Shown: positions 1 to 57,779 of the stretch, one piece after another | Layout of the letters: the number at the start of each line of letters is the position of its first letter | Numbering within the stretch: position 1 is the stretch's first letter | NCBI RefSeq assembly: GCF_026151205.1 | Contig: NC_087072.1 | Location: forward strand, 8,615,669-8,679,668 | Length of the DNA stretch: 64,000 nt | Source of the DNA: Bolinopsis microptera | Taxonomy: Eukaryota; Ctenophora; Tentaculata; Lobata; Bolinopsidae | Reading direction: 5' to 3' | Notes under the pieces: generated by a model | Told to the model about the DNA's origin: nothing | Seen by the model: only the letters and a program-made list of their open reading frames with translations | Database searches by the model: none | Program-made: the position numbers and the translations under genes

Positions 1-1586
1 GTGACGTGTGTATTATGTATGTAATATGTTCATATTTATATATAATATATATATTTTATGCGTACATACTAAATTGACCCATTAAATGGGGTGTGGTGAA
101 TATATAATATATGAGCACTTCTTGAAGCTAGCATTTGAAGAAATACCTGTAAATTTTACTGCTGAAAAGCATGTACGCTTGCCGGAATGCTTTATAAAGT
201 TATAATATTCATCAAAATATTTGAAGTTAAGTGGACTAAAGGTAAGCACGTTCTCCTAAATCTATTTTTACCAGAGTAAATCTTTAGCGGACAGTGATAC
301 TTGTTGGAGTTGAGCCAGATGAATGTGATCAGTGTTTTAGAGTGTTATTAGTGGCTGGGGTGTATGAAGTTTCATCCTGAACTCCTCCGTCTTATCGCCT
401 CCCTAACACTAGTCATTAACAACTTGGTTAACTTGGTTAACTGCCATGCTAAGGTCACGTCCATCATTGCCATGGGGCTGTGTATTATCATAATCATGAT
501 AATGGGGAATGTTGCAAAATTGATATAATATATGGTTTGGCGCTATGCCCTCAAATGTAGCGGCGAGGGAGATGGAACTTGCAAATTTAACGTTAGCGTG
601 TCTAAAATGTTTAACATAGTTTGGATGAGCAGGAGCTCGCACTGCACTGCAACAGTTTGAATTACACTAGTCTATACACCTACCCTCTGTGTATATCATA
701 GTTCCTTTTAAACTGGGATTCTGCCCAGTTTTAAATTCCTTCATCCTCTGCAATGAAAGTAAGATTGCAGACGCCGTTTTCCTGTTTTAACAGGTAGATA
801 TTGACGTAAAGTAGGGATTTTACCCCCCTTGATGATGTCCACAAGACTCTGAGATGTGCGGTGCAAGTTGTGTCGCCCTATTATCAGTTATTATACCTGT
901 ACATGATGTACCGCCACGCATAGTAACCGGCTTGCTGGAGAGCTGGAAATGAGATCTGCGACCTGCCGATGTATTGAGCTAATGCTCTCCTATATTCCTG
1001 AGATCAATGCGACTTTTTGGCTCAACATTTTACAGTAACAATTGCTCCAGCAGTTAACGCAATACCATTATCTTTTATTTTATTTGTTTTAAACCAAGCT
1101 GGAACTAAGCATTTCTTAGCCTAATAGGCAATTATTCGGCCAGCGAGGCGTCCAGATATCGACTGCAGGTTTTATTTAAAACAATCAATTACCATTGTTG
1201 TGACCATCTAATAGAGCCCCTCTCTCGTCGAGTCTTTAGATTTATAATTTCTGGCATAAGCTTGGGTGCAATCTCTATTAAGAGTCGTGCTATTTTAAGA
1301 TATCTACGAGAACGCAAGTGGCATAATCAATAAAATGGTCTCTATAGTAAGTTTTTACGTAACGCGCGGCTTCGCCATTTTAGTTTTGTCAGCGCATAGC
1401 ATGCGCGCGTATAAATTAAATTTCATTTTATATCATTTATTTATTTTATTTCTCTTATTTCAACACGGCCCGGACCTGTCCCTCAGAAGAAATGGCGATT
1501 GTTAATTATATACGTCTGTAAATTATATACGTCTTTCTGGTTCAATGTTAAATCTGTGCTAATACCCTAACATTTCGCAACTTCAG
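1..1586. other. AT-rich stretch without a recognised gene
   Basis: I see no reliable exon here. It lies directly 5' of the first recognisable deacetylase exon, so it may contain upstream introns or a missing 5' exon of that gene, but nothing resembling the expected MEF2-binding region could be identified. A 39-codon ORF near 85-205 is too short to call. Confidence 0.5.
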
Positions 1587-4500
1587 GATACCGTCAGTAA
1601 GCAACTTGAGGAAAGCTACGTCAGAGCCCAATATAAAAGCCAAAGCAAGACACCCTCGCCAGAAACTCCCTGCTTTTAACAGATCAGCTACTTTTTCAAC
1701 CGCTTACTCGCCCAGAAAGGAACTCCATCCCGCTCTAAGAGCCAGAGCTCCGTCCATGACGGACGAAGCCAACCATAATGTGAGAACCTTGTACATTACA
1801 CTTCTGCTGACGTTGGTTACCTTCTGTTTTTGTGACAGCTTTATAAATCTAAATACTTTTAGACAGCAATAGACAAGCGTGGGCTGTCGCTTGGGTCTCT
1901 TTGATATTAAACAGAAGACAATGTCTAGATCACTTACGAAGCGTATATATTTCAGTCTAAACACGATTGTTCTCCGCCCTTCAAGTTTCCGAAGCTGGAG
2001 TCAAACTTCTTCAAGTCCCTGCCAAACATGAAAAACATATCCAGTTCAGATATAGCCGACAAAGCTAAAATGGTATGTTCACTGTTCAGTTACTCTTGAA
2101 TTCTATAAATAGCAAGTTAAAAATGTTGTAACGTTTGTTCAAATTCTGTGGAATTTTTTTGAGCTTGTACTTTTTCAGCAAATATCCACCGACGACTCTG
2201 CCCTGAGGTCACACCCATCGCTGAAAGACGCAACAATGGAATCTATGAGCGGGTCATCTCTTACTACCTTTTACCCCAGCCTTGCTAAACTTATAAATGG
2301 CGATATGACAGAAAGAACAAAAGTAAGACTTCTTCATATTGGCACGCACCAACAATTATACCACTTTGATATCTATTGACTGACGTATTCTACTAAAAAT
2401 ACCTCCATTACTTATCGCTATATTTTTTAGCAGGATATATGGAGGGGGCAGGAACTGATGAAAGGACTACGAATGCCCGAACCGAGTATTTTGAGTTCAT
2501 TCTCTCCGGCAGCTAGGCCTCTCTTTCCTAATGGCTCCCTGTTATCAACCCCACCTGAAAGATTGGACTTGTCATCCAAAAATATCCTCGAATATGCTCA
2601 GGTAAATTGACTGTATGTAGTAATGTAGGATTGTAACGATCTGTCAGATGTACTTAAAGTATTTCTTCTCCAGTCATAAGGAGAGCTATTTATAGTACTA
2701 TTATTTCAGTCTTCTAAAATGTCCATATTTTCAGAGCCAACTGATTCAAATGCAGCAACTATCACAAGAGCAGGAGGAGATTAAGGAGCAGCAGAAAGTA
2801 CTGATGCAGCAACAAGAGCGTATCCTGAAGGAGCAGGACGCACTTCGTCAGCGAGAAGTTTTCATACGCAAGATATTCTATGATGCCTCAGCAAACATGG
2901 CTGTTGCAGATCACATGGTCAGTGCCATGATCAATCAAAGCCATGTTATGAGCAGCCCTCTGGTAAGATCTACTTTTATGTCAATATCCAGTCCTATCCG
3001 TATCTTAAATGTTTTATAGTGTCGGGGTTTGTGGACCCGAATATTCAGCATCCAACTGTTAAAGATATGAACTTGTCATAAATTAAAATCATTAGTAACT
3101 AACTTTCCAACTTTCAGAGCATGTCTGTACCAGATTTCTATTCCTCCACGAAACACGCCGAGATGCTTTTGAAGAAAGCTCAAGAACAGCAACTTGCTGT
3201 TAGCCAGGCTGAGCAGCTGTTACTCTTACAGCGATCCGCCGGAAACTTAAAACTTAATTCCGCATTTGGGCATTACAACCCTGGCACCAGAAATAGCATA
3301 AGTAAGTACTTGTATGTACATATTATGATATTATAATATTGCTGAGTTAATATAACGAAACCTGTACAGGAACATTAAATATGACTTCTGACTATTTTGG
3401 ACCTGACATCTCCTTTAAAAGTTGTGTTATTGACCTCTCTCGTTGAATTTGCCAGGTTTCCAAGGCTTCAAACTGAAACCCCAAGTAACCTGCTAGGCTT
3501 TACCCTGAGCCCAACCCCAGGTTCCCAGTCAGCCCCCAATGTACAGTCCCTCGCCGCGGAGATGGTCACGGACCCTCCCCCTCTGTCGGGACGGACTGGT
3601 ATTATCTACGACAGCATCATGTTGAAGCACATCTGTACCTGCTCCAATCCCGTGGTTCACAAGGAAAGTCCGGGTAGATTGAGCAGCATTTGGGCTCGTC
3701 TTACGGAGACGGGTGTAGCTAACAGATGCGCGCGTCTCAAGTCTCGCAAAGCGACAAATGACGAGCTGGAGCTGATCCACAGTCCTGAACATGTCTGTAA
3801 ATATGGTGGAATGAGAAGCAAGACTTCGCCAGATGGTATGTTTTGACGTATTCTCCGCTGGTTTTATTCTTCAGAAAATATACTTATTTGTTACTTTATT
3901 CCTACGAAAATATTTATTCCTAATAATTTATTCTCGTCTAACATACTAGAACCTAAAAGAGTAACATTCCCCACAGTAGACGGTGAAGACTTTGTCAAGC
4001 TGAAATGTGGTGGTATCGGAAAGGATGAGCAGACCATCTGGAATGACCTTTGCTCGGCACAAGCCGCTCGAATCGCTGCTGGATCAGTGCTGGAGTTGGC
4101 AACCAAGGTTGCAATGGGCGAGCTGAAGAACGCGTTTGCACTGGTGCGCCCACCGGGTCACATGGCAGAGCGAAGTGAGGCTAAAGTTGGTTGTTACTTC
4201 AACAATGTGGCTATCGCTGCCAAGTACCTCACCACTCAGAAACTTTCTAACAGAGTCCTCATAGTAGATTGGGTAAGTTATCCTCTTTATTATTGTCGGA
4301 CACTTAACGTGATGTTCCCCTGGCCTACTTTATCATGTATCACAGCTGCGATGTCCACGTTGAAAGCAGTGCATAATTAACCAATTTTCCAGGATTTGGA
4401 GCACGGTAACGGATTGCAGCAAGCATTCTACAACGACCCTAACGTACTGGTGATAAACATTCACCGCTACGATAACGGCACATTTTTCCCCCGAACGGGG

Positions 4501-5574
4501 CACGCCACCTGCGAAGGAGCAGGCGAGGGGAAAGGGTTCAACATCAACATTCCTTTCTCTGGGTCTGGTCAGGCCGAGTATGGTGATCCTGAGTACCTCG
4601 CAGCGTTCAGGTGAATACCTCTCCACACTTGTTGTGAGATCGTCATAATCTGAGCTAGTACTTATTATATTCCTTGTTTTACTCGGTTCCGCTTTTCATG
4701 ACAAAAAACTTGTTTTTGCAGATGTGTGATAAAGCCGGTAGCGGAACAGTTTTGCCCAGACATTGTGTTGATAGCAGCTGGCTACAATGCTATGAGTGGG
4801 CACGATAGCTACAACGTAACCGCAGAGTGTTTCGCCTTCATGACCCAAGAGCTGGGCCGCCTCGCAGAGGGACGGATAATGATTGCTCTGGAGGGGGGAT
4901 ACAACCTGGTGTCCCTTTCTCAGGCGTGTGAGATGTGCATCAGATCTCTTCTAGGAGAACAGGTCAGTTAAAATAATGCATATTACCTTAATTTACGGTT
5001 TTTGTCATTTCATTCATATTGCTGCCAAGTTTGGTAACTTTCAGTTTTATTGTAGCATATAGTTGATGCAGAGAAGTCACCTTCTTCTTTTCAGATAACC
5101 CACCTGCCAGCAAAAAGTTTGAAGTGTGCTCCAAATACATTTGCCGTGAAGGCTATCGAAGAGTGTATTACCATCCACAGTAAGTTTAAAAGATGAAGCT
5201 GCGACAATATCCAACCAAATTAACACTCATTCGAGAAGGGTCTCTTTTCTTGTTTACTGTTCCGCAACATGATATCATTATGACGTATATGAACATGAGT
5301 AATGGTTATGAGGCAGTAACACCTAACAGTTTGTCATGTGAAATCATACTATGATGACATATGACATAACGAACGTCAAACTGTTACGTGCCCTGTCCCC
5401 AGGGGGGCACCCTTTAATCAACTAACTTCGTCTTCTCCAGGGAAGTACTACCAGTTCGCCCCCTACCTCAATCACATCTCCCTGAGCGTTTACGATGCAG
5501 TCAAGCGAGACCAGGAAGAGGTTGACACTATTACCGCACTTGCGTCCCTTAGCATGCAACACCCCAATAAGTAA
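1587..5574 (+). CDS. Class IIa histone deacetylase (HDAC4/5/7/9-like), 5' partial, probably catalytically dead
   Basis: Twelve exons with consistent phases: 1587-1779, 1986-2072, 2179-2322, 2431-2601, 2735-2962, 3118-3301, 3497-3835, 3977-4272, 4393-4610, 4722-4962, 5095-5179, 5441-5574 (TAA). Exon 1 carries LRKATSEPN, matching the family's 14-3-3/CaMK phosphorylation site (LRKTASEPN in vertebrates). Exon 5 encodes the Gln/Glu-rich coiled coil. The deacetylase domain spans exons 7-12 and ends with the family-typical TITALASLS. The class IIa structural zinc set is kept (CTC, H, later KCGG). Catalytic positions differ: RPPGHM for RPPGHH, WDLEHGNG for WDVHHGNG, AAGYNA for the GFDA motif. Two of three zinc ligands (His to Glu, Asp to Asn) and one active-site His are therefore replaced, whereas the LEGGYNL Tyr is present where vertebrate class IIa enzymes have His. 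I infer a scaffold or transcriptional corepressor in nucleus and cytoplasm, not an active enzyme. The first exon(s) with the start codon are not found; the exon 7 acceptor is the least certain boundary. Confidence 0.93.
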
Positions 5575-5595
5575 TTACTGCAATCGTTAATCGTC

Positions 5596-5601
5596 AATAA
5601 A
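5596..5601 (+). terminator. Polyadenylation signal of the HDAC gene
   Basis: AATAAA lies 22 bp after the TAA stop. This makes a very short 3' UTR that ends at the edge of the heptamer satellite. Confidence 0.7.
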
Positions 5602-5648
5602 ACGTGTGATCATGATGTGTGATGTGTGATGTGTGATGTGTTGCAAGT

Positions 5649-5757
5649 GTGATTTGTGATTTGTGATTTGTGATTTGTGATTTGTGATTTGTGATTTGTG
5701 ATTTGTGATTTGTGATTTGTGATTTGTGATTTGTGATTTGTGATTTGTGATTTGTGA
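5649..5757. repeat. Heptanucleotide (TTGTGAT)n array
   Basis: About 15 near-perfect tandem copies of TTGTGAT, flanked by degenerate TGTGATG units. It begins about 50 bp past the HDAC polyadenylation signal. The minus strand shows a repetitive open frame (QITNHKS units) that I regard as a by-product of the array. Confidence 0.95.
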
Positions 5758-5799
5758 TGTGTATAGTGTGATGAGTGATTTGTGATGTGACTAAAACGT

Positions 5800-7929
5800 C
5801 AGCTAGTCGACAATTATAAGCAGATATAAAGTCAGAAAGCGAGCAGTTTAAAAAAATAGTTAAACAAATGATCTGCAGTGCAATATAAGTGAAGCTGGTG
5901 CTATTTTGTCGGTTGGGATATCTTATCACCAGAGAGAGAGAGAGAGAGTGACTCTCAGAGTGAGATATGAGCGGTGAAATACACAAACGTGATTCTACTA
6001 ATTCAGCTGATTTAACAATTAATTTAGCTGAGCTGACTTCTACCACTAAGCTCTAAAATCTAAATCTATTAACACAAAAAACGATTTTCTTATCTGTATC
6101 ACGGTTAATTGCGTGTAAAATTAGCCGCTGTACATGTATATCAAATATGTTTTATACAAGCTGCCCCTAATATGACCACTTACTAAGTAATTTTCAGCTT
6201 TAATGCCGCCGCCGCCGCCAACGGATCAGCTCTTCTTCAAAATCGATCTGTCTGAGGTTTAATGACGACATCACCAAAATCTTTCAATAATCCGAACTAG
6301 CTTACGCTGAAAGTTCTAACATCACTGTTGTCGCTCAAGGAATCAGGTGTGAGGAACCACGGGCGAGGAGTAACGCGTGAGCTGCGTGAGAAGTAACGCG
6401 TGAGCTGCGTGAGAAGTAACGCGTGATATTGCTACCCAGACTCTGTAGGCACGCGCCCGTGATATGTAATACGATTTTTTGTTGTTGATGTATTTTGACT
6501 TTTATTATGTAACCTGCCTACCATTCGAGCTAGACTCAATAATTTGTAATTTGAAGTGCTGGACGCGCACTAAAGAATCAACACGTGCATATAATATCGC
6601 TTTTTATCATGTTTTATTGCTAAATTTTAACCCTTTGTTGAGTTTGGTGGTCACACGTTGAAGTCGAAACAAACACGCATACTTCGCACATTATTTTAAT
6701 GATAAATAGCTGATTGCAATGCCATTAAATGGTGTTTATTGTTAATGTCGGGTTCATTTAGCCGTTCAAATTTTTAATACATCATGATTTGTAGTGAAAA
6801 TTATTTTCAAGAAAAAGATTACTATCATCATTATATCAGCTCCAATTTATTGCTTTCGGCTATTAGTTTTATATGATTGGAAATAGAAGATTTGGTTTGC
6901 AGAGTTGTTTTTAAAATGTGCTATGCCATCCACAATTACATTAACAAAACTTCCTGAAATTTCTTTTCGACTAAGCTGTGTTACCAAATTTTTACCACTA
7001 ATTTCTTCCACCACAAAGAAAAATCAATGGAAATGTAGATGAATTGGCCCATTTTCAGTGCGTTGGTTACACAATAAGAATTTTTTATTTGGTTAAAATT
7101 TCTCAACCAGGTCTAATTGTTCAGTGAACAAGGCCTAGTTGTAGTTTTTGTCACTAACAACTTCACATTTAACGCTGTCACTTTATTCAATCCTTATGAC
7201 TATCACCATCAGTTTATTAGTATCACAAACGCTCATAAATTGAATTGCTTCACTATCAATTATCTTTCTTAAATTATTCCATGGATTAACATAATGTTAT
7301 TTTATTTTCAAGTTAAATTATATGGTTCGTATCTGCTGGCATCTGAGTCGCGCGGGTTGGCAAGGATGTGACTGAATTAATCAATTTTACACTGGTAACT
7401 AAAATCTTGTTTCCATTTATCCCTTTGAACAGCAATTCTCCAACCAGTAAGAGCAGCTGTATCAAGGCTTGCCTATAGGAAGTTCATCATAAATTCCGAC
7501 CAAAGATTAAGACTATATTCACTCGGGTATGCATCTTGAAACCTAATATGCGCATTCCTAAGATCCGTTCTTGTCCCACCCAGTTTGTTGCAAGTTGTGT
7601 AAATACTGCTGCTGTGTAGAAGAGGGTGCTTTTATTGTTTAAGGAAGAATAATATTTAAAGTAGACTTTTACACGTTCATGTCAGTCAAATTCATCTTTG
7701 TTAAAATTCGCAGATGTATTTTTCCTAAGCTGACTCAACCATATTATTCAAAATTCTGTTATAGGAAATTGATTGAATATTGCAAATATTCTGCATACCT
7801 TTTGATCTTTAACATTTAATATCATCGTTTTAATTTGAAGTTGTTGTAAATGACGATTGACGAATATACAAATAATTTAAAATTAAAGTGAAATAACCTC
7901 CCCTACATAGCCTTTTCTGACAGTCTGAT
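5800..7929. other. Intergenic, no recognised gene
   Basis: AT-rich sequence with only short ORFs. The one structured element is a 23-bp tandem repeat at 6370-6425, listed separately. Confidence 0.5.
6370..6425. repeat. Short tandem repeat, 23-bp unit
   Basis: The motif GTAACGCGTGAGCTGCGTGA recurs about 2.5 times at a 23-bp period, giving repeated ACGCGT sites in otherwise AT-rich DNA. Confidence 0.8.
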
Positions 7930-7937
7930 ACTTGGAG

Positions 7938-8497
7938 CAGGCACGTAGCCAGGGGGGGCTAGGGGGGCGGCAGCCCCCCCGGAAAAAATCGAACCCCAGA
8001 AAAAAGATAAGCCCCCTAGTCGCCTGGTAACTGGGCTGTGTTTATGACTGCAGTCAGTCAAAGATTTGAACTGTGGATTAGTAAATATATGTCATTAAAT
8101 CCAAGCAAACATTCTAGAAGACTTCTATAATTATAGTCAATAGTGTCCCCTAGACCGTAGGAAATGTAAAAATCTTAAGACGATGAGGCCTGAGTAAGTC
8201 GTAAATTCTGATTGGAGAATGCAGATTGCTGTTGTGAAGTTACCAAATTTACGTGAGTACTTGATTCTTTTCAATCCCAGTTTATTGCTGTCCTACAAAT
8301 TTCTTTAATGCCAAATGTCGTCTAAAACACCCTGTTTCGCAAAAAATTTCCGGGGGGCTGCGCCCCCTAGCCCCCGCCAAGGGTCTCCGCCCCTGGACCC
8401 CTGCCACAGCTTGCTCGCTGCGCAGCTTGATTGGACGCGTCGGCTCGATTCGCTCGCCGACAGCCCCCCTCAAAGAAAAATCCTGGCTACGTCCCTG
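7938..8497. mobile_element. Non-autonomous hAT-type element (560 bp) with 8-bp target duplication
   Basis: The ends are inverted repeats: CAGGCACGTAGCCAGG at the left, and CCTGGCTACGTCCCTG at the right, 15 of 16 positions matching. The flanks ACTTGGAG at 7930-7937 and 8498-8505 are a perfect 8-bp target duplication, the length made by hAT transposases. The subterminal DNA is rich in G and C homopolymer runs. It has no transposase. A related unoccupied sequence, TTGGAGGACTTCG, occurs near 63,150. Confidence 0.9.
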
Positions 8498-13346: not shown

Positions 13347-14776
13347 TCAAACATAAACTGGACGAACTCCATGATCATCGAATGATCTTTGTAGACCCAT
13401 AACCAGTTCTTTCTGTTCCTCATCCATTGGTTCATTTTTTTTCGTAAATTGTTTCATGATCTCATCCCCATTTGGAATTGGTAAAGTAAAGTCTTTTTTG
13501 ACCTGAAGTTCACTGACAAAGAAATCCAACAAAATATCTCTCATATGAAGCATAGTGCATGATTTTTCCTGCTTCCCAAATTCCGTAAGAATCCAAGCTT
13601 TGTTAAAACTTTGGTTTTTTAGGTCATCTTCGGGCTTGATGAAGCAACTACTCTCGAATTCCGTCCTCAACCGACGAAATTCGGCTGTCTTTTCTTGAAG
13701 TAATTTTTCTCCGAATGCAAGGACTTTCATTTTGAACATTTGGTGGAAAAAGTTGTATAATTGAACGTCTACAATATTGTACTTCAAAATTAAATCAGCT
13801 GTTTTTTGGCTAAGCTCGGAGTCTTTCCTACTCCGATCGGCTGTTGAGAACCGCTTCATGAAAAATATATCCTCGACCTCCCAGCCCATCTGTTCTTTGA
13901 GCAGAACCAAACTCTCGTCAAAGTAGTCTGTGAGGAGCACGAAATCAAATTCTTGTGCAAGATCCGCGATGAAGTCGTCTATCTTTTCTTGTAAAGTTCC
14001 GTCTCTAAGGAGATTATTGAGTTAAAATAAGACGAATAGCATTGAGTAAACAATCACATCTTGTCATAGTTGTAATAATATTAAACAATGCCTGAAAATT
14101 TAACCGCGCGATTTATCCTGACGAATAATTTTGAACGCAAACTCTGCCAAAAAGATATAGTGAAAAGGTGATTGTTTTTCAAAATATTGTCTTAATAATT
14201 GTAGCCAAGAATCTATATACCTTTGTAAATATTTATTAAATCCAAGATCTTTAGATATCCCATTTACAATATTTCCCAGAGAACAGGAAGTATTATTTGG
14301 TTCTAGCCCAGCTTTATTATCATCCAACCACTTTGATATAGTTTCATCCAAGGATAGAAATTCTCCATCAGTACCTTGCCTCTGAAAATAGTTCTCTATA
14401 AAGCTTACACCAAAATTTGTAAATCCTTATCCCAATTTAATCAAAAGATCATGTCCATTAAGCATGCATTCATAATATGATAAGGTGAACATCGAGGGCA
14501 GGACTAAAGGCATGTTTCATTTTCAATCGGCATACTTTCAACTTTTCGAGACAAACGAATAACAATGTTAAAGTTGACATTTGAAAGTTACTTACGTATT
14601 TCTTATCTGCACCAAAGTAAGCAAAAGCAGAGTTAAAATGTTTGATAGGAGATCGAATAATTGTTGTGTAGAAAGTGCGAAACTTGGGAAGAATCTCATG
14701 CTGCCTTTCAGGCTTAAACCTAACATGAGCGATTTGAAAGTTGTAGTCTCCACCAGGTCGCGGAGGAAGCAGAGGT
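13347..14776 (-). CDS. Galactose-3-O-sulfotransferase-like gene, copy A (exons 2-4 only)
   Basis: The family transfers sulfate from PAPS to galactose on glycans or glycolipids in the Golgi. Exon 2 (14776-14596) carries the 3'-phosphate-binding motif TTIIRSPIKHFNSAFAYF, exon 3 is 14381-14221, and exon 4 (14004-13347) contains FVLLTDYFDESLVLLKEQMG, a family signature, and ends at TAA. All three are open and in phase with 2 bases needed from exon 1. No exon 1 (transmembrane anchor and 5'-PAPS site) lies between 14.8 and 17 kb. The nearest unpaired exon 1 is at 42,424-42,911 on the same strand and joins in frame, but every copy shares that phase, so this does not prove one gene. It is either a gene with a roughly 27.6-kb intron or an exon-1-less remnant. 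Confidence 0.85.
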
Positions 14777-17684: not shown

Positions 17685-17970
17685 GTAAAAACATAATATA
17701 TTCTGCTACTAATTTTGTAGATACACTCAGTTTCTACGTCTTTTATCCTCTGGGTACGTAAAAACATAATATATTCTGCTACTAATTTTGTAGATACACT
17801 CAGTTTCTACGTCTTTTATCCTCTGGGTACGTAAAAACATAATATATTCTGCTACTAATTTTGTAGATACACTCAGTTTCTACGTCTTTTATCCTCTGGG
17901 TACGTAAAAACATAATATATTCTGCTACTAATTTTGTAGATACACTCAGTTTCTACGTCTTTTATCCTCT
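17685..17970 (+). repeat. Four tandem copies of a 73-bp unit
   Basis: Near-identical units start at 17685, 17758, 17831 and 17904. Each begins GTAAAAACATAATATATTCT and runs through TACGTCTTTTATCCTCTGGG. The same segment is present once in the related S-family copy at about 23000-23090. The array ends exactly at the left edge of the LINE insertion. Confidence 0.95.
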
Positions 17971-19869
17971 AGGGTATCGGAGAGGAGGAGAACTCTGTTT
18001 CAGGCCAAAGACGCATATCATGAGAATCCTACAGAGGAGAGTAGAGAGGTAGTTAAGGAGTGTAAGGATGCACTTGCAGTGAGCTACAAAGAGGTTGAGG
18101 AGGAGACTCTTGTTTCTCGGATCAGGCGGGCTGAGGATGCTGCTGACAGGTGCAAGAATAAGGAAAGTTGGGACCTTATTAATGACATAAATGGCAGGAA
18201 AAGCAAGCCATGCAGCCTGGTTGATGGAGGTAGTGCAGAGGGGAGATTGAAGAGCTGGAAGGACCACTTCACTAAGCTCCTGGGTCAACCACCATCTGTA
18301 CCTGACCAGGAAATAGTTATCCAAACCATCCACCCCCAGCAGGATATAGAGACTGGTCTGTTTTGCAGGGAGGAGTTAGCGGAGGCGAGGAAGCAGATCA
18401 AGGAGGGTAAGGCCTATGGTGATGATGGCATAGCTCCAGAGATTCTCAAAAGAGTGGACATGGACGACCTGATTCTAGAGTTCTGTAACAGCGCTCTGGT
18501 TGATGGAAAAATCCCTGATCAATGGCGGCAACTCAACATCGTGCCTGTGCCAAAGAAAGGAAATCTAACTAAAGTGGATAACTACAGAGGAATCGCTCTT
18601 ACGTCCATTGTTAGTAAGACCCTGAATCGTATGATCCTTAACAGAATCAAACCAGCGATGGAGAAAATCCTGAGGATCAACCAAAACGGATTTCGGGAGG
18701 GACGCAGTACCACCAGCCACATTCTGTGTCTAAGGAGGATCTTGGAGGGGGCCAGAGACAAAAACCTGACCGCCCTTCTCTTGTTCATCGATTTTAAGAA
18801 GGCCTTTGATAGCATTCATAGGGGTATATTGATGAAGATACTCCTGGCATATGGGATACCAGAGCCCATTGTTAGGCTGATAGATGCTATGTACAAGGAC
18901 ACCATGGCACGAGTCATCACGGAGGATGGTCTGACTGAAGCTTTCCTTATACTCGCTGGAGTTATGCAGGGAGATACACTGGCGCCATACCTCTTCGTGA
19001 TTGTCATTGACTGTGTGATGACAACAGCACTTAGAGGCAAAGATCTGGGCTTCACTGTCAACCCTAGAAGAAGCAGGAGATACCCAGCAGTTAAGATGAC
19101 AGATGTCGACTTTGCTGACGATCTTGCACTGACAACAGACACCGCAGAGCAAGCGCAAGATCTTCTCCTCAGTGTGGAGCTGGCTGCTAACTCTGTTGGA
19201 CTTCACCTCAACAAGAGTAAGACGAAGTACATCAGAGTCAATCTCTCTGAGTCTGACTCTACCGTCATTAAAGCAGCAAGTGGGCAGGAGACAGAGCAAG
19301 TAGATGACTTTGTCTACCTTGGAAGCAGAATAATGAGTGCGGAGAAGGACTTTGATGTTAGGAAAGCAAATGCATGGGGGGCCTGTCATCAGTTAAAGAC
19401 AACCTGGAAGTCTGGAATGCGCAGGGACTTAAAGATCCGTGTCTTTCGAGCAACGGTTGAGCCCGTACTCCTGTACGGCTCTGAAGCTTGGACGATAAGC
19501 CAATCCATGACTAAGCGGATCAATGGATGCTACACTAGAATGCTCCGGATGGCCTTGAACATACGTTGGCCACAAATCATCAACAACAGTGATTTATACG
19601 GCAACATCCCCAAGCCATCAGCGATGATAGCCTCCAGAAGAATGAGACTGGCTGGACATGTAGCCAGGCATGACGACCTTCTGGCAAACCAACTTCTGTT
19701 CTGGGACCCTCAGCATGGAAACAGGAGACCGGGGAGGCCCCACCTTACGTTTCTGGACATGCTAAAGAAGGACACCAGCCTTTCCTGTGTTGAAGAGATA
19801 AGATCTGTTATGCTTGACCGCGACGTGTGGCGAGGAATTGTAGTTGCTCGGACCAAGAAGCCGACTTAA
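17971..19869 (+). CDS. LINE reverse transcriptase, N-terminally truncated
   Basis: An uninterrupted frame of about 632 codons. RT motifs in order: FFIDFKKAFD-type block seen as LFIDFKKAFDSIHRG (motif A), GVMQGDTLAPYLF (motif B), DVDFADDLALTT (motif C with the FADD catalytic pair) and LHLNKSKTKYI. After the RT come the LLYGSEAWT and RLAGHVARHDD motifs and RRPGRPHLTFLD near the C-terminus, as in RTE/CR1-like proteins; I do not assign the clade. The N-terminal apurinic-type endonuclease is missing, so this copy cannot retrotranspose alone. The intact frame suggests recent insertion. Confidence 0.92.
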   Translation, partial: RVSERRRTLFQAKDAYHENPTEESREVVKECKDALAVSYKEVEEETLVSRIRRAEDAADRCKNKESWDLINDINGRKSKPCSLVDGGSAEGRLKSWKDHFTKLLGQPPSVPDQEIVIQTIHPQQDIETGLFCREELAEARKQIKEGKAYGDDGIAPEILKRVDMDDLILEFCNSALVDGKIPDQWRQLNIVPVPKKGNLTKVDNYRGIALTSIVSKTLNRMILNRIKPAMEKILRINQNGFREGRSTTSHILCLRRILEGARDKNLTALLLFIDFKKAFDSIHRGILMKILLAYGIPEPIVRLIDAMYKDTMARVITEDGLTEAFLILAGVMQGDTLAPYLFVIVIDCVMTTALRGKDLGFTVNPRRSRRYPAVKMTDVDFADDLALTTDTAEQAQDLLLSVELAANSVGLHLNKSKTKYIRVNLSESDSTVIKAASGQETEQVDDFVYLGSRIMSAEKDFDVRKANAWGACHQLKTTWKSGMRRDLKIRVFRATVEPVLLYGSEAWTISQSMTKRINGCYTRMLRMALNIRWPQIINNSDLYGNIPKPSAMIASRRMRLAGHVARHDDLLANQLLFWDPQHGNRRPGRPHLTFLDMLKKDTSLSCVEEIRSVMLDRDVWRGIVVARTKKPT

Positions 19870-23460: not shown

Positions 23461-25317
23461 TCAATTTTTTATTTCATTAAGAGCACTACGTTTATTAAGT
23501 CCTCCAAAATCACTGAGGGTCATAAGCTGGTTTTGCCAAAATGATTCTCTTTCTTTAGCAACCCTACTTCTATCTTCTAAGGTTAAACATTTTATAAAAT
23601 CTAGCTTTTCAAAAATAATAACCTCTATCTGATCGGATAACTCATTGTCAAACGTTTTTAAGGGCTCTTTGGTAAGATTATGGAACTGGTTATCGTTAAA
23701 ATGACAAGAAATTTCACAACTCCTAACCGCTTTCCTAATATGTGATTTGTGGTTCTGCCATCTGGTCTTAAAATTGTTAACTGTGCTTCCTACTGAAGCA
23801 CGTCTGCAGACTTTATCCCTTACTAGATAGCACACCCCTACTGTGTTGCAGTCTAGTTGTCCAATGATGTTAACAGTGTACCCCGAGTGGTAGCTCTGAG
23901 CTGTTTTTGATTCACAAATATACATTCTACAGGCTTTACATCTGGAGTTACAATGATAACATCCCCCCTCTTCTATACTAGTAGGCAGAGCCACATTTTC
24001 AGTGTTAGAGTTTAAAGCTATAACATTACTATCTTCATGATACTTACGATCTTCTGAAAGTTTACTCGGAACTAAAGTTTCTTTGATAGTTTTGTTACCA
24101 CGATATGAAACAAATACTTTACTAGGCTGGATCACAGACTTTAAAAGGGGGTCTAGGCCAAGGATAAATTTATTCTTGTTAACTATTTTACCAATTGGAG
24201 GTAAGTTAGGGTCAAAATCACAAACTAAAGGAAAACATCTTTCACTCTTCTTACTATTAGAGCTTGTAAGGTTTTTTGAAATCAGATCATCCCGTTTAAG
24301 TAACTCAACTTTCTCAAAGGATTTATGGATAAGATCTTTATTGTAATTCCTATCTTCTAGATATTCACTAAATTCAATTTTACATTTCAAATACTCTTCT
24401 TCCTCTGAACAGTTTTTGAACACTCGATGTGCTACTCCATATGGAATATTCTCTGCTATGTGTGTAGGGTTGCAGGATTGTGGGAGTAAATAGCTATGGG
24501 CATCACTAGGTTTGCAGTACGTCCTAGTTTCTAGCTTGCAATTTTTCGAGTAAATAAACAGGTCTAGAAATTCAGTCCCCTCTGTAGAAGGTGTCGACAT
24601 TGTAAACTTGAGGTTTGGATGGTATTGATTGAGCCAAAGTAGGAACTGGTATAGCTTCTCCAGTGACTCAGTCCAGGTGATGTATATGTCGTCACGGTAT
24701 CTGCCATAGAACTCAGGGGTTGTGATTTCTTGGCTCTCCACTATCTTACTGTCCAAGGGGCTGAGAGCTGAGTCTGCATACTGGCAAGCATTATTTGGAC
24801 CCATCGCAGTTCCACTTGTCTGTACATACATGTTGCCATTGAAAACAGTGATGTTGTTATCCAGGGTTATCTCCAAAGCTTCCATAACGCAGTCTGTGGA
24901 GAAAAGTTTAGTACTTCTTTGGTCTAGTAAGGTTCTACAGGCTGGTAGTCCAATCTCCTTTGAAATGCTGGGGAACATGTTTACAATATCAAATGTAACG
25001 TGGTAGATGGTCTTCCCAGTCAATCTTCCTGACTCATTGAGTTCTTTCATCTTCATAAGTAGATCATTAGAATCCATGAGGCAGTGGGGCAGGGTTACCT
25101 TCTTTAGTTCTTCTGCTGTGAATATTGAGAGGTTCTTGATGTAAGAGTTACATCCAGTGCTGATAAGTCTCCCAGGGTAGTTTTTCTCTGGTTTGTGAGC
25201 TTTCAGGTTCATGTAGTTTACTCCAGGTTCATTTTCCTCTTCACTAGGTGTTACCCATTCCATAAAGTTTGGGGTCATGCCAGGGCAGTCAGCATCGCTG
25301 AGTATTTCAGAACCCAC
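23461..25317 (-). CDS. PLE1 reverse transcriptase and GIY-YIG endonuclease ORF
   Basis: RT motifs in order: MNLKAHKPE (a PLE hallmark, usually PKxHKP), VTFDIVNMFPSI (motif A), SGTAMGPNNACQYAD (motif B) and GRYRDDIYITW (motif C). Next comes FLDLFIYS, then a CYHCNSRCKACRMYIC zinc-finger-like segment and the GIY-YIG domain. That domain reads VGVCYLV...RASVGST: the second motif has Ser where the PLE2 copy has Tyr (QSYVGYT), so endonuclease activity is doubtful. It overlaps the upstream ORF by 43 bp in another frame, so the polyprotein is split by a frameshift. Length is 618 codons from the GTG that opens this frame. Confidence 0.92.
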   Translation of the reverse strand: MGSEILSDADCPGMTPNFMEWVTPSEEENEPGVNYMNLKAHKPEKNYPGRLISTGCNSYIKNLSIFTAEELKKVTLPHCLMDSNDLLMKMKELNESGRLTGKTIYHVTFDIVNMFPSISKEIGLPACRTLLDQRSTKLFSTDCVMEALEITLDNNITVFNGNMYVQTSGTAMGPNNACQYADSALSPLDSKIVESQEITTPEFYGRYRDDIYITWTESLEKLYQFLLWLNQYHPNLKFTMSTPSTEGTEFLDLFIYSKNCKLETRTYCKPSDAHSYLLPQSCNPTHIAENIPYGVAHRVFKNCSEEEEYLKCKIEFSEYLEDRNYNKDLIHKSFEKVELLKRDDLISKNLTSSNSKKSERCFPLVCDFDPNLPPIGKIVNKNKFILGLDPLLKSVIQPSKVFVSYRGNKTIKETLVPSKLSEDRKYHEDSNVIALNSNTENVALPTSIEEGGCYHCNSRCKACRMYICESKTAQSYHSGYTVNIIGQLDCNTVGVCYLVRDKVCRRASVGSTVNNFKTRWQNHKSHIRKAVRSCEISCHFNDNQFHNLTKEPLKTFDNELSDQIEVIIFEKLDFIKCLTLEDRSRVAKERESFWQNQLMTLSDFGGLNKRSALNEIKN

Positions 25318-26591
25318 TCTTTAATGGTGATGATGGTTGTGTGGATCTGTTGTTGTTGATCCGATACTTGTTTGAAAGTGCTCTGATCTTTTAGAGCAGC
25401 TTCTACTCTATTGATGTAGTCTGATTTGTCTAACACAAAGAACCCTGTCCCTTTATCAAATAATCGAATTACAGCATCATCCCAGCTTTTGAGCTCTTGG
25501 ATTGCTTTTGTAGTCTCCTTGTCTACATTCCTAGGAGCTGGCTTTGGTTTTCTAGGGTGATTAGATATCTGTTTCTTGACATTGCTGATGAGCAGTTCTA
25601 ATGCATGATTACCACTGTTAGAGAAATTCTTCTTCTTTGAGGTTTTTATTCCTAGAACTTTCTCCATTTGCTTTACCTTCTGGTCAAGGGTTTTCTCATG
25701 TTCTTCTACATTTTGGGTGGGGATTACAACTCTACTGAGGACGAAACTCATTCTAAGTGAGTTTGCCCAGGAGTTTACATCTTCTACTAGTTTATCTATG
25801 TTCGTTTTAGAAGGAGTAACTGCAAATGATTCTCCAAGGTGGAAGACAAACTTATGAGCATTTGTAACTGTTTTGGACGAGAGATTAATGACAGTTTTGT
25901 CTAATGCAGCTTGGCTGACATTGTTTCTGTTAAGTGGTCTTGATTTTATCCCATCCCTCCTGTGTTTATGGACAGATTTCCTTTTTCTAGGTTTAGTGAC
26001 TTTTGATTTTTTCTCCTTGCGCCTACGAGTTCTCGTTTTTGTTAGAGATATCCTGGGTACTTCTGGTTGTTCTGGTAATGAAGTATAGCTGTTTTTGATG
26101 TATACCTCTGTTCCATTCACCTTGTCTCTATTTAACTTAGAATCGTGTGTTTTCTCACATTCCAGTTTCTGTTGGCGGATCTTGTGTTGGACAGTAGCCA
26201 TACCTCTCTCAAAATGGTTTGTTGGCACAGCAGTTTTAAACTCATTTTCCAGTTTGTAGTAGTTCTCTCTTAGTCTGTTTGACCAGTTGTGGTAGTAGAG
26301 GATTAAGATATCCAAGATTCTGCTAGCTGTGAATATCATCATACTGGCGGTCAACTTCTCTAAAACAGGGTCTCTGACACTACACTGAAATTGACACTGT
26401 TCAAAGATACCTTTTGGTATTGTTGATTGTTGCTTGCTTTTCATAAGGTAGAAGTACTGCTGTTGTATACGGATGTTTTTCCTTCCAGCATTAGACAAAG
26501 CAGCAATAAACCTATCGGAAGTGTTAGTAGGTCTGTGGTACATATTTTGGGGGAGACTTTGTTGCGATGAGTGTGGAGAGTGTATTAACAA
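25275..26591 (-). CDS. PLE1 N-terminal ORF
   Basis: The 438-codon frame upstream of the RT ORF contains VINLSSKTVTNAHKFVFHLG followed by FAVTPSK, and DKGTGFFVLDKSDYINRV near the C-terminus. Both correspond to conserved N-terminal PLE segments (NLSS...L..G..F.PTP and DKG..VV..D...Y). A Lys/Arg-rich stretch around residues 180-215 is probably nucleic-acid binding or nuclear targeting. It stops where the RT frame begins, and the two together read as one protein broken by a single frame change near 25,300. The start codon is the first ATG; no promoter was seen. Confidence 0.85.
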   Translation of the reverse strand: MLIHSPHSSQQSLPQNMYHRPTNTSDRFIAALSNAGRKNIRIQQQYFYLMKSKQQSTIPKGIFEQCQFQCSVRDPVLEKLTASMMIFTASRILDILILYYHNWSNRLRENYYKLENEFKTAVPTNHFERGMATVQHKIRQQKLECEKTHDSKLNRDKVNGTEVYIKNSYTSLPEQPEVPRISLTKTRTRRRKEKKSKVTKPRKRKSVHKHRRDGIKSRPLNRNNVSQAALDKTVINLSSKTVTNAHKFVFHLGESFAVTPSKTNIDKLVEDVNSWANSLRMSFVLSRVVIPTQNVEEHEKTLDQKVKQMEKVLGIKTSKKKNFSNSGNHALELLISNVKKQISNHPRKPKPAPRNVDKETTKAIQELKSWDDAVIRLFDKGTGFFVLDKSDYINRVEAALKDQSTFKQVSDQQQQIHTTIITIKEWVLKYSAMLTALA

Positions 26592-41913: not shown

Positions 41914-42423
41914 GTTTTATAATTCTTCCGAAACTGAATCCTTAACAAAAAAATTGTTATTGCTATTTGAATTTTACCTAGCCAATAAAAGTGCAATCTT
42001 TTAGAATTAATTCCGAAATTATCTCATTTTTTCTAATATTGGAAGGTAGATACACCACGTTCACAATGTTGTAGGTTATGATAAATTCATAACTAGAGAC
42101 CCTTTATAATAATAATTTACAGAGTTGTCTTGTGAACTCTACCCCAGATCTAGCCCATTTCTAGGTCAATTATAATTTATCCATGGATCACATCTCTAAT
42201 TAATCAGTTAATCGTCACTAATTGGGGACCGGATCAGTTTGGTTATATCCCAAGTCGGCCACCGTCTCAAATCTTCTATAATATCAGTATAAAAGTTTTT
42301 TGTTTGCACGAAATTTTGTAAAGCTTGGTTCCTTTAAAAAGTTAAAAGTTCAAAATAACCCACAGCTATGCACGCAATGTATATATTGTACGTATCATCT
42401 CTTCATAACTTAAAATCACTTAC

Positions 42424-42911
42424 TTGTCTACGTCGAGTTGCCTAGACCAAGGTTGAGTGACGAAGTTTAGCCGCCTCCTTAATCCGAATAGGTAAAACAT
42501 ATTGACCAAGGTGGAAGTGCCACATTTGTGAGTCTTAATGAACAAAAAACTGTCATCTTTTCCTTTGGGTACCTGAAGCCCTTCTCCCACTATTTTGAAT
42601 CCTTGCAATCCTGATTCCTCGTTAGTTTCATCAGTAGGTATAGGTTCCGTAGTGGGGGATTCTGTGGCAGATTGGGGCTGTAAAGGAGCTATCACGTTAA
42701 TTCTGGAGCCAGGATGGTGTTGTTGATCTGGCAGGTGGCGGTTCTCAAGAGAGATAATATCTTTGCTGATAAGAACAGGGGGATCTCCTGAAGATTCGGA
42801 GAGGTAGCTGGTGATGAGGTGGAAGAAAGTCCCAAAACAGACTATTAGGACAACTAATGAGAGGAGTCTGTCCAATCTACCGACGCCCATAATTCTCATT
42901 TTGGATGGCAA
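42424..42911 (-). CDS. Galactose-3-O-sulfotransferase-like gene, orphan exon 1 (copy F)
   Basis: Open from the conserved start MRIMG (ATG at 42899-42897) to a GTAAGT donor after 42424. It encodes a short cytoplasmic tail, a membrane anchor (LLSLVVLIVCFGTFFHLI), a stalk and the 5'-PAPS-binding loop FLFIKTHKCGTSTLVNMF, as in copies B and C. The stalk lacks the Thr/Ser/Gln repeats of those copies. The intron beyond the donor resembles that of copy B for about 100 bp (CTATGCACGCAAT), but no exon 2 follows before the Ly6 gene. It may belong to copy A (exons 2-4, 27.6 kb away, in phase) or be an isolated remnant. Confidence 0.8.
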
Positions 42912-45492
42912 TGATTGTTTTCTCCGGAGCTAGTGTTGTTTACAACCAACCTTGTTGTGAGTCTGGCTATCTGGGGTTTAAAATTGTGGCATTAAGAAAT
43001 GGAGATAATGGAGTAAACAAACTTGTTCAAACGCTTACAAATTCTCAAAGGTAACTGATTGTGTACATTTTCTGAAATGCTAGATAAAAATACAAGGCGT
43101 CCCAAAAAAGGTGACCAAACGATCACTGTTAATATTTAACTCTAAGAACGGTTTGAAAACGTAAATTATGATTTACATTGGCTGTATGTTAAATTGTGGT
43201 ATATTTTTAATTGTCCAATATCTAGCTCAGTTTTAATGCTATCGGCTTGTACTGCTTGGCGAAGATCGTGCGATTCTGAGCTTGGATTACATCATTTGCA
43301 ATTGCAGACCTCACATGAGTCGTGTAATGACTAATGAGCAATTAACAGATCATTATAAGATTATACCCACAATTACATAACTAGCTCCTTGACACTTAGA
43401 CAGGGTAAACCATCGTTGTACAGCTACTAAATAAGCTAAAGCCTTGTTATTTTAAAGTTCGACTCTGTTTTAGATTCTTAATACAATGTAATTCAAACGG
43501 TGATATGTATAAAACTCGGCAGCAGCACCATAAGCTATTTAAGCCTCTCGGGGGAAACAAAAATTGCACACTATTGAAAAACGTGGAATAAAGAGGTTCA
43601 CATGATCCCAATCCCCGGTATATGTAGCCTCTAAAACCTGGCTAGCGTCTCATATGTAGCCCACTTTTAGGCTTTATATGCATGTATAGTGCGTATTGTC
43701 ATGGATTACAGCTGACAGCTCGACGTGTATGAAAAGCACCACCAAATGCGATATTATGAGCTACGAAACATTACATTTCTTGCACAAATTGGTCAATTAA
43801 AGGTTAATTAAAAGTTTGGGGGGAAAGATTAGGTCCGGTATATCGAGGTGCCCGATAAAGAGAGGAGGTTCGATTGTAGAAGAATATGTGCAGAATGAAA
43901 ATGGAATACCGATTCTAATATATATGACTATAAAACAGCAAGTGTAATACAGTCCACATAAAACAACAACAACGTGACGAAGCTAGCAAGCTAGGGGCCG
44001 ACTTCCTTTTTATGTGGAGTTCGGCCACGGTCCTTTCGGTACAGATTTCCCTGCAGCATAGTCGGTACGCAAGTCATATGCACTCGTGTTATGTAATGCT
44101 CTATCTAATAGTAATACTATCATGCTGCGTAAACTATATAAAGTTCGAACTGATCTTTGTATATTAACATTAATTTGGTATCCTCCATTTTTGATGAGGG
44201 ATATTGCCATACGTAGCAAAAATCAGTTTGTTTGCATATTCGGCATCATGAAAAATGAACACAAATGCGTCACTATGCATGCTTAAAATACAATCTCTAA
44301 AGAACTGGAAACTCACTGGACTAAACAAACAATTATTGAATTAAAACTACACGTCAATTATGGCTACGAGAGTGTAATTATAATAAAAAACGGGGCTAAC
44401 TCTGCGTACAAACTATAAAGTTAGTACCGTAGCCTCATGAGGACACGTCTTATACTATAAAATTGTCAGTAGCAGTTGACCACATCCGATGTACCAACAC
44501 TACAAGCTTGTATATCGAATGTAAGTGACCGTTGTTATGGAACTGCGTACCTTATAGGACTGATCCTGAGCCGAAAGGACCGTGTTTAGTGTTCAAAATG
44601 TCTTGGCTTGGTGGGATCATCAAAATATGATATGAATGCATACATTCGCTGTTTCAATATTGTTGCTATAACATTTATATATATATAAACGTTTTCTTAA
44701 AGTTAGTTAACATTATTGTTAACAATTTATATTTATACCTTTTATCTTTGTTCGGATAACCCCTAAAGACCAGTTCATGGGCCTCCTCTGAACAACATAG
44801 TTAAACTTCTGCCTCGGCCTCACTCCTGCCAGATAAAATGCGTTCACCAGAGTTGACATCGGAAAATCCGGAGGACACTGCGAACCAGGAATCAATTACA
44901 AGGCTATCATCGCTCGATAATCGGTTTGGTATTACTTATTTTGATTTTCCGACTTTAAAGCTGATTAATTCTAAAGAAACCAAGAAATTAATTTTACTTT
45001 CCTAAAATTAAATCGTTGATTTCATTTCTATATCACTTTTTGTTTACATTCCAGTACATTGTGCAGACAGTTGGAGATCTAAATTTGGAAGTATGTAAGG
45101 ATCGAGATATGATATCGATCGAAATTACTAAAAATACTCTAGCATAATTGTAACTGCAGTTTTACAGAACTCTAAATGCTTAATGAATACACTTGCAGGT
45201 ACCACCCGTATTCACACTCAGTATTTAGTTTAGTCATTTTCCAATACGAGATTGGGGACGTGTTCTATAAACAAACAGACAAACAATCATGGAAACTGGA
45301 AAGGTATCTGGATATTATTTGAAACAGTAGATGGCAAAATAACTCTCAAGCATTCTTCTTCATCATCATTCGGCTTAGCTATTACATATTATAAAACAAT
45401 TTAAATGAGACATATCAGTTCCTTGATGGACATAAAATTAAACATTGAATACTAAGTTATGAAAATTAAAGTACATCCTGCAGTTTATCATA
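42912..45492. other. Intergenic region of the sulfotransferase array
   Basis: No gene seen. About 44,150-44,540 is similar to 57,850-58,088 plus 59,470-59,650 (shared GATGAGGGATATT, CACATCCGATGTACC and CACTACAAGCTTGTA), a trace of the duplication that made the array. Confidence 0.5.
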
Positions 45493-54165: not shown

Positions 54166-54435
54166 TTTGGATAATAATGATTGATCTGCAGGGCTAGAAT
54201 TCAGCTGTTTTTGACAACCAATCATGTCGATAGTCTCGCTATCTGGAGCTATATGTTGTGCCATTAAGAAATGCAGGTATTATTACGAAACAAACAAGTC
54301 CACACGCTTGCAAACACTTAGATGTGAGAAATGAAATACTAATAATCTGATGATGAGCATGATTATAATCTGTCTATTAGACACCGAATACGTGGACTAC
54401 AAGAAATACAAGGTATTCACATACACCACCTGGAA

Positions 54436-57538: not shown

Positions 57539-57660
57539 TTTGGATGGTAATGATTGCTCTCCAGAGCTAGTGCCACTTTTAGCAACTGACCTTGTTGATA
57601 GTCGAGCTATCTGGGGTTTAAAAGAAATAAAGGTATTATTACGAAACAAACAAATCCACA

Positions 57661-57779
57661 CGCTTACAAATTCTCAAGAAAGCAGAAGGAAAACACAAAA
57701 GAAGAAAACATCCTCTCTCTCATCAAAGCAGCGTAAGATGAGCTACAAAGATGAAATAAAGCTGGCAACATATGATTGA
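57661..57779 (+). pseudogene. 3' fragment of the small basic gene (copy of 12.0-12.7 kb)
   Basis: The encoded end KKKTSSLSSKQRKMSYKDE aligns with the C-terminus of the 12031-12744 gene. The downstream sequence ATGATTGATAAGCTCA and AGGATCTAGGAGGAT is shared too. No upstream exon was found. It marks the border of a duplicated unit. Confidence 0.7.

What the first reader, a model, noticed from the sequence alone, without database searches (positions are those of the whole stretch)
3977..4962. Class IIa HDAC with two of three catalytic zinc ligands replaced but structural zinc site intact
The sequence shows WDLEHGNG where the family has WDVHHGNG, AAGYNA where it has the GFDA ligand, and RPPGHM for RPPGHH, so the D/H/D zinc triad would be D/E/N and one active-site His is gone. 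The class IIa CTC-H and KCGG structural zinc residues, the 14-3-3 site LRKATSEPN and the coiled coil are kept. The position where vertebrate class IIa enzymes have His is Tyr here (GGYNL), the class I state. A lineage that lost catalysis through the metal site rather than through Tyr-to-His would show that class IIa HDACs became pseudoenzymes by more than one route. The splice joins across these motifs are phase-consistent.
Basis: partly seen in the sequence, partly recalled or inferred. Interest (0 to 1): 0.85.

Follow-up and report, generated by a model that had tools for sequence, protein, structure and literature searches.

The report
Catalytically dead comb-jelly class IIa HDAC
The only class IIa histone-deacetylase gene found in this genome, very probably that of the comb jelly Bolinopsis microptera, encodes an intact, apparently maintained protein whose metal-holding active site has been dismantled, a different way of becoming a non-enzyme from the one seen in vertebrates.

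Summary
Window 1587-5574 (+) encodes a 12-exon class IIa HDAC, 797 aa, 5' end not visible. Against human HDAC4, two of three catalytic zinc ligands are changed (D840 kept, H842E, D934N) and active-site H803 is Met. Closed-state structural zinc ligands, a 14-3-3-type site and an NES-like tail remain. Assembly statistics match the ctenophore Bolinopsis microptera. No other class IIa gene was found; class I and IIb genes keep D-x-H-H. An open frame and high GC3 argue against a dead pseudogene, although its branch is long. D759, H803, F812 and H842 are also positions where human HDAC4 mutants lose HDAC3 association, so canonical corepressor docking is probably gone too. Best reading: a maintained, signal-regulated pseudoenzyme adaptor. 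Tyr at 976 is the usual non-vertebrate state. Activity, expression and spread within ctenophores are untested. New variant of a known kind.

The parts
1587..1779 (+). exon 1 of the visible model; carries the 14-3-3-type site LRKATSEPN (Ser codon 1621-1623)
1986..2072 (+). exon 2 (linker)
   Evidence: GT-AG, phase kept
2179..2322 (+). exon 3 (linker)
2431..2601 (+). exon 4 (linker)
2735..2962 (+). exon 5, glutamine-rich coiled-coil-like stretch
   Evidence: by eye, no coiled-coil program run
3118..3301 (+). exon 6 (linker); could end at 3311 instead
3422..3835 (+). exon 7 (could start at 3456); start of HDAC domain with structural zinc ligands C667 (3634-3636), C669 (3640-3642), H675 (3658-3660)
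3977..4272 (+). exon 8; structural zinc ligand C751 (4006-4008) kept; D759Q (4030-4032), H802 kept, H803M (4162-4164), G811V (4186-4188), F812G (4189-4191), D838 kept
4393..4610 (+). exon 9; D840 kept (4393-4395), H842E (4399-4401), H843 kept, S861N, F871 kept
4722..4962 (+). exon 10; D934N (4786-4788), L943/G944 loop deleted, Y976 kept (4900-4902)
5095..5179 (+). exon 11
5441..5574 (+). exon 12 to stop; C-terminal DTITALASLSM resembling the HDAC4 nuclear export signal (resemblance recalled)
5596..5601 (+). AATAAA poly(A)-type signal about 20 bases after the stop codon

Best explanation
This is the single class IIa HDAC gene found in a ctenophore genome, very probably Bolinopsis microptera. 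It encodes a maintained pseudoenzyme. Shown from sequence: class IIa descent, an open reading frame, loss of H803, G811, F812, H842, D934, D759 and the L943 loop, and retention of the structural zinc ligands, a 14-3-3-type site and an NES-like tail. Inferred: the domain no longer holds catalytic zinc in the usual way and cannot deacetylate, and it no longer docks NCoR/SMRT GSI-type peptides through the pocket. It would then act as a signal-regulated shuttling co-regulator: phosphorylation, 14-3-3 binding and export control its nuclear presence, while the linker/coiled coil and the surface of the zinc-stabilised HDAC fold hold partners. The order of events (pocket given up once neither substrate nor corepressor peptide used it) is a guess.
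For: Alignment to HDAC4 on checked numbering. 412 bits to HDAC4 in one domain against at most 255 bits for a single HDAC6 domain (two-domain HDAC6 chains top that list by summing). Grouping with HDAC4 at 95/100 (9 rows; 94/100 in the earlier tree). No other class IIa locus among 14 Pfam matches and 11 protein matches in G000; the class I and IIb regions keep D-x-H-H and a G-x-D motif. Exon GC 49.5%, GC3 53.8%, intron GC 34.7%. At least 11 base changes in the six altered codons; at a neutral divergence of 0.1, 9.7 stops would be expected in 2394 bases and none is present before the end. D759, H803, F812 and H842 are the only 4 of 21 listed SMRT-loss surface positions that differ (list in PMC4498904), and all four were among ten mutants with compromised HDAC3 association (section 19 read). 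HDAC4 H803A and D840N are described as lacking activity and HDAC3 binding yet supporting IFN signalling and STAT2 binding (PMC6575207 passages).
Against: No activity, zinc, expression or binding data. D840, H802, D838, H843, F871 and Y976 are kept, so residual or altered activity is conceivable. 17 of 21 SMRT-loss positions are kept, though HDAC6 domains keep 14 to 16 of 21 as well. The window's branch is long: 0.78 against 0.27 for HDAC4 and 0.48 for the class IIb piece of the same genome, so constraint may be relaxed. The N-terminal part cannot be seen: 5,000 N lie directly upstream. Pfam found only Hist_deacetyl in the 797 aa. No second ctenophore was available to show conservation of the altered pocket.
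Confidence: 0.7

Rival explanations
1. The pocket is not empty but repurposed: D840/E842/N934 with H802 and Y976 bind another metal or none and read or process a different ligand.
For: D838, D840, H802, H843 and Y976 are all retained, more than a wholly free pocket might keep; two acidic groups, an amide, a Tyr and a His could form a polar site.
Against: F812, G811 and the L943 loop are gone, as are H803 and D759; retained residues may be kept for folding or potassium binding. No model or assay was made.
Confidence: 0.13
2. A decaying pseudogene or recently dead gene.
For: Catalytic residues lost; end branch 0.78 against 0.27 for HDAC4 and 0.48 for the class IIb piece of the same genome; 22 of 94 class II-invariant columns changed.
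Against: It is the only class IIa copy found; 797 codons open across 12 exons, GC3 19 points above introns, expected stops not seen; an earlier tree with a hand-joined class IIb row gave equal branches, 0.70 and 0.69, so the rate difference depends on the row used.
Confidence: 0.08
3. Active enzyme made by alternative splicing, editing or an unassembled paralogue.
For: cDNA is not available and the held assembly has gaps or withheld stretches.
Against: In window 1-8000, both strands, the catalytic-motif pattern scan found only the gene's own four motifs plus two stray GFC tripeptides; HDAC queries against the window gave no other match under E 0.3. Replacements need up to three base changes per codon, more than simple A-to-I editing could undo.
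Confidence: 0.04
4. Corepressor scaffold in the human manner: catalysis lost but NCoR/SMRT-HDAC3 still recruited by the HDAC domain.
For: Closed-state zinc ligands needed for GSI binding are kept; 17 of 21 SMRT-loss positions kept; an NCoR-like gene with a DAD-type SANT and an HDAC3-like gene exist in G000.
Against: F812 and D759 contact the peptide directly and H842 through a water; mutants at D759, H803, F812 and H842 of human HDAC4 had compromised HDAC3 association; no GSI-type motif was seen in open frames of the NCoR-like region examined.
Confidence: 0.2

Closest known systems
Vertebrate class IIa HDACs (HDAC4/5/7/9)
   Same: Class IIa domain with structural CCHC zinc site, 14-3-3-type serine site, NES-like tail; 181 of 359 aligned residues identical to HDAC4
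   Different: They keep D/H/D zinc, H802/H803 and the F812/F871 tunnel and changed Tyr to His; this protein keeps Tyr and loses zinc ligands, His, tunnel wall and D759
Drosophila HDAC4 and other non-vertebrate class IIa HDACs
   Same: Tyr at the 976 position
   Different: No altered metal site was seen described for them in the papers listed or passages read (lists capped); their sequences were not compared here
HDAC10 C-terminal pseudo-deacetylase domain
   Same: An HDAC fold described as catalytically inactive (PMC11532494 passage)
   Different: A second domain beside an active one in class IIb; here the only domain of a class IIa protein is affected
MITR (truncated HDAC9 form)
   Same: Class IIa regulation without catalysis; cited as support for dispensable catalysis (PMC7288346 passage)
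   Different: MITR lacks the domain (recalled); here the fold is retained

Membership tests
Class IIa HDAC (by descent) | C-terminal Hist_deacetyl domain | tested here: met
   PF00850 E 3.6e-74 over residues 415-720 of 797
Class IIa HDAC (by descent) | class-specific structural zinc ligands C667, C669, H675, C751 | tested here: met
   all four kept; zinc binding itself not tested
Class IIa HDAC (by descent) | groups with HDAC4 apart from class IIb and class I | tested here: met
   95/100 in a tree of 9 rows with one class IIa reference; 412 bits to HDAC4. With only two rows the label shuffle is weak: 52 of 500 as low
Class IIa HDAC (by descent) | 14-3-3-type serine site RKxxSEP in the N-terminal region | tested here: met
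   LRKATSEPN, Ser codon 1621-1623; phosphorylation not tested; motif identity recalled
Class IIa HDAC (by descent) | N-terminal MEF2-binding/glutamine-rich region | tested here: inconclusive
   only PF00850 matched in the 797 aa; 5,000 N upstream hide the 5' end
Zinc-dependent lysine deacetylase (as enzyme) | D/H/D catalytic zinc ligands | tested here: not met
   D840, E842, N934
Zinc-dependent lysine deacetylase (as enzyme) | tandem active-site histidines H802/H803 | tested here: not met
   H802, M803
Zinc-dependent lysine deacetylase (as enzyme) | measured activity | not testable with these tools
   needs recombinant protein
SMRT/NCoR GSI-docking class IIa domain | F812/F871 sandwich and D759 contact | tested here: not met
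   F812G, D759Q; F871 kept

The most novel reading that the evidence does not exclude
[quoted passage not shown] The conserved class IIa job would then be the regulated shuttling adaptor, and the pocket conserved elsewhere would be held by ligand (acyl-lysine or GSI peptide) binding rather than by turnover.
Probability: 0.3. Interest if true: 0.75.

Novelty: new variant of a known kind. Interest (0 to 1): 0.52.

Why it matters
Why class IIa HDACs keep a nearly complete but barely active pocket is an open question (three interpretations are listed in a passage of PMC4505066). A lineage that gave the pocket up by a different route is a natural control: what it still does cannot depend on zinc catalysis, nor probably on GSI docking. 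If the altered pocket is conserved among ctenophores, it separates the regulatory roles of class IIa HDACs from catalysis.

Tried and rejected
Pseudogene, alternative-exon and intact-paralogue readings were tested and judged unlikely. Sequencing error was not tested with reads; it is judged unlikely because several separate codons differ by two or three bases without a frame break.

let-7 was tried as a lineage marker and was uninformative (it rang in no control). Innexin and homeobox searches fitted an animal but did not decide the lineage; the assembly statistics did. The NCoR family model PF15784 found nothing, yet a SANT search found an NCoR-like gene with a helix that looks like the GPS2-interaction region (recalled), so that negative was probably false. 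In one search the two best matches were a CoREST-like ORF; the NCoR-like exons came third and fourth (E 0.0145 and 0.0209). A viral-contig scan with exon 8 found no relative. The genome-contig collection was not scanned. No formal clustering test of the lost residues was made; 22 of 94 class II-invariant columns differ, many conservatively, so change is not confined to the pocket.

With exact pieces the branches are 0.78 and 0.48. I lowered the main confidence from 0.72 to 0.70 and raised the pseudogene rival from 0.06 to 0.08 for that reason.

Full report
What is there. The window (G000:C1:8615669-8679668) carries near its left end a gene on the + strand of 12 visible exons, 1587-5574, coding for 797 residues and a stop. 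All 11 introns of the model are GT-AG and the joins keep phase. The join of exons 6 and 7 allows two readings, both in frame; it lies in the linker. A poly(A)-type signal follows the stop (5596). The first visible exon begins inside a codon, so the 5' end lies further left. The 5,000 bases directly upstream of the window read N in the held genome (L015 4670-9669), so the N-terminus cannot be seen.

Organism. The held genome has 264,652,675 bases with C1 of 26,206,493 and C11 of 20,825,282. Table 1 of PMC11797021 (passages read) gives Bolinopsis microptera 265 Mb, 13 chromosomes, largest 26.2 Mb, N50 20.8 Mb. The contig count differs (232 held, 346 in the table). A legend passage of PMC10232365 also gives 13 chromosome-scale scaffolds. 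I take the window to be B. microptera; this rests on statistics, not on a sequence match.

The observation. The PDB sequence search gives HDAC4 412 bits in one domain, against at most 255 bits for a single HDAC6 domain (two-domain HDAC6 chains top the list only by summing). On HDAC4 numbering anchored at D840, which places C667, C669, H675, C751, D759, F812, F871, D934 and residue 976 correctly, the window keeps C667, C669, H675, C751, D838, D840, H802, H843, F871 and Y976. It has H803M, H842E, D934N, G811V, F812G, D759Q, S861N, H678S and a deletion over L943/G944. So two of three catalytic zinc ligands, the second active-site His, one tunnel wall and the rim Asp are gone. Of 94 columns invariant in five class II reference domains (HDAC4; zebrafish and human HDAC6, both domains), 72 are kept and 22 changed. 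Many of the 22 are conservative, so the domain as a whole has also diverged.

Tyr at 976. [quoted passage not shown] The Tyr here is therefore taken as the ancestral condition, and the loss is independent of the vertebrate one.

Paralogues. PF00850 gave 14 matches in G000: 2 are this gene, 12 fall in four other regions. The window's own domain as query gave 11 matches: 6 in this gene and 5 elsewhere, at 43-49% identity in the D-x-H-H exon. Translation of the other regions shows an HDAC1/2-like gene (C11), an HDAC3-like gene (C9), a class I gene scoring near both HDAC1 and HDAC8 (C2) and class IIb sequence (C1:11.37-11.39M, taken as one region). Each region keeps D-x-H-H and a G-x-D motif. No second class IIa gene was found; gaps or withheld stretches mean that absence is not proven.

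Is it a dead gene? GC is 49.5% in exons, 53.8% at third positions and 34.7% in introns. The six altered codons need at least 11 base changes (2+3+1+2+2+1, assuming ancestral D, H, G, F, H, D). Unconstrained drift of even 0.1 per site would give 9.7 stops in 2394 bases (chance of none about 6e-5), and none is present before the end. Against this, the branch is long. In a tree of 9 rows built from exact pieces, window and HDAC4 pair at 95/100 and the window branch is 0.78, against 0.27 for HDAC4, 0.48 for the class IIb piece of the same genome and 0.15 and 0.44 for its HDAC1-like and HDAC3-like rows. An earlier tree with a hand-joined class IIb row gave 0.70 and 0.69 and is not relied on. So constraint is supported by the open frame and composition, and may be relaxed compared with active relatives; no ctenophore relative was available for dN/dS.

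Corepressor docking. In human HDAC4 the SMRT GSI peptide sits at the mouth of the active site: I+3 between F812 and F871, D759 to T+4 and a backbone nitrogen, a water to H842 (PMC6294515 section 17). Mutating C667, H675 or C751 abolishes GSI binding (PMC4505066 passages). A mutagenesis screen lists 21 surface positions whose mutation loses SMRT binding (PMC4498904 passages). The window keeps 17 of 21; the four changed are D759, H803, F812 and H842. As a yardstick, HDAC6 domains keep 14 to 16 of 21 and differ in other places, chiefly the structural zinc ligands. Those four are among the ten mutants tested for HDAC3 association, which was compromised (section 19 read). HDAC4 H803A and D840N are described as lacking activity and HDAC3 binding but still supporting interferon signalling and STAT2 binding (PMC6575207 passages). 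So the pocket loss probably removes human-style NCoR docking as well. In 28 kb around it, on its strand, the motif scan found no GSI-type motif in a long open frame and one bare GSI in a short frame between stops; motifs split by introns would be missed. Whether GSI motifs ever existed in this lineage is unknown. A MEF2-type MADS exon is present in G000 (L016; type recognised from memory).

Mechanism. I commit to a maintained pseudoenzyme adaptor whose nuclear presence is set by phosphorylation and 14-3-3 binding, with the zinc-stabilised HDAC fold as a binding surface. Shown: residues, gene structure, lack of a second class IIa copy in the searches made. Inferred: no catalysis, no GSI docking, regulated shuttling, partner binding.

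Literature. Searches (open-licence PMC only; broad searches listed only the top 10 to 20 of up to 16,417 papers) listed no paper whose title or abstract start concerns a ctenophore class IIa HDAC or loss of the class IIa catalytic metal site. 'ctenophore' with 'class IIa' and 'HDAC' gave 0 papers; 'Mnemiopsis' with 'HDAC4' gave 2, each holding either word once and by title on other subjects (not opened).

Noticed in passing
window 13347-14018(-), 55059-55754(-), 42423-42929(-); by eye also 45493-46155, 53500-54279, 56981-57673, 60551-61207 (-): Several galactose-3-O-sulfotransferase pieces (PF06990), N- and C-terminal parts in separate frames, forming an apparent tandem array; two have threonine/serine-rich repeats (Pfam for three pieces, of which 42423-42929 is below the curated cut-off).
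   Followed up: partly
window 17932-19869 (+): Uninterrupted 645-aa reverse transcriptase frame (RVT_1), looking like a retroelement copy.
   Followed up: no
window 48101-49507 (+), 23461-25320 (-): The first frame has a GIY-YIG domain; the second matched no Pfam family but looks similar by eye. They may be Penelope-like elements (recalled).
   Followed up: no
window 5653-5785: Tandem repeat of TTTGTGA-type units shortly after the HDAC gene (ends; no repeat finder run).
   Followed up: no
L011 473-811 (-), G000:C1 about 11394.5-11394.8k: A second copy of the class IIb D-x-H-H exon whose end runs straight into sequence of the domain's start; it looks like a rearranged partial duplicate.
   Followed up: partly
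L021 and L022 (G000:C2 about 8.64-8.65M, -); L019 (G000:C1 about 12.616M): NCoR/SMRT-like gene missed by PF15784 but found by SANT search, and a separate open double-SANT, CoREST-like frame of 594 aa.
   Followed up: partly
G000:C1:4254005 and 4378223; C7:6754013 and 6935049: Innexin frames present as pairs with identical scores on one chromosome, recent duplications or assembly duplicates.
   Followed up: no
L015 4670-9669: Exactly 5,000 N ending flush with the window's first base, which hides the HDAC gene's 5' end.
   Followed up: no
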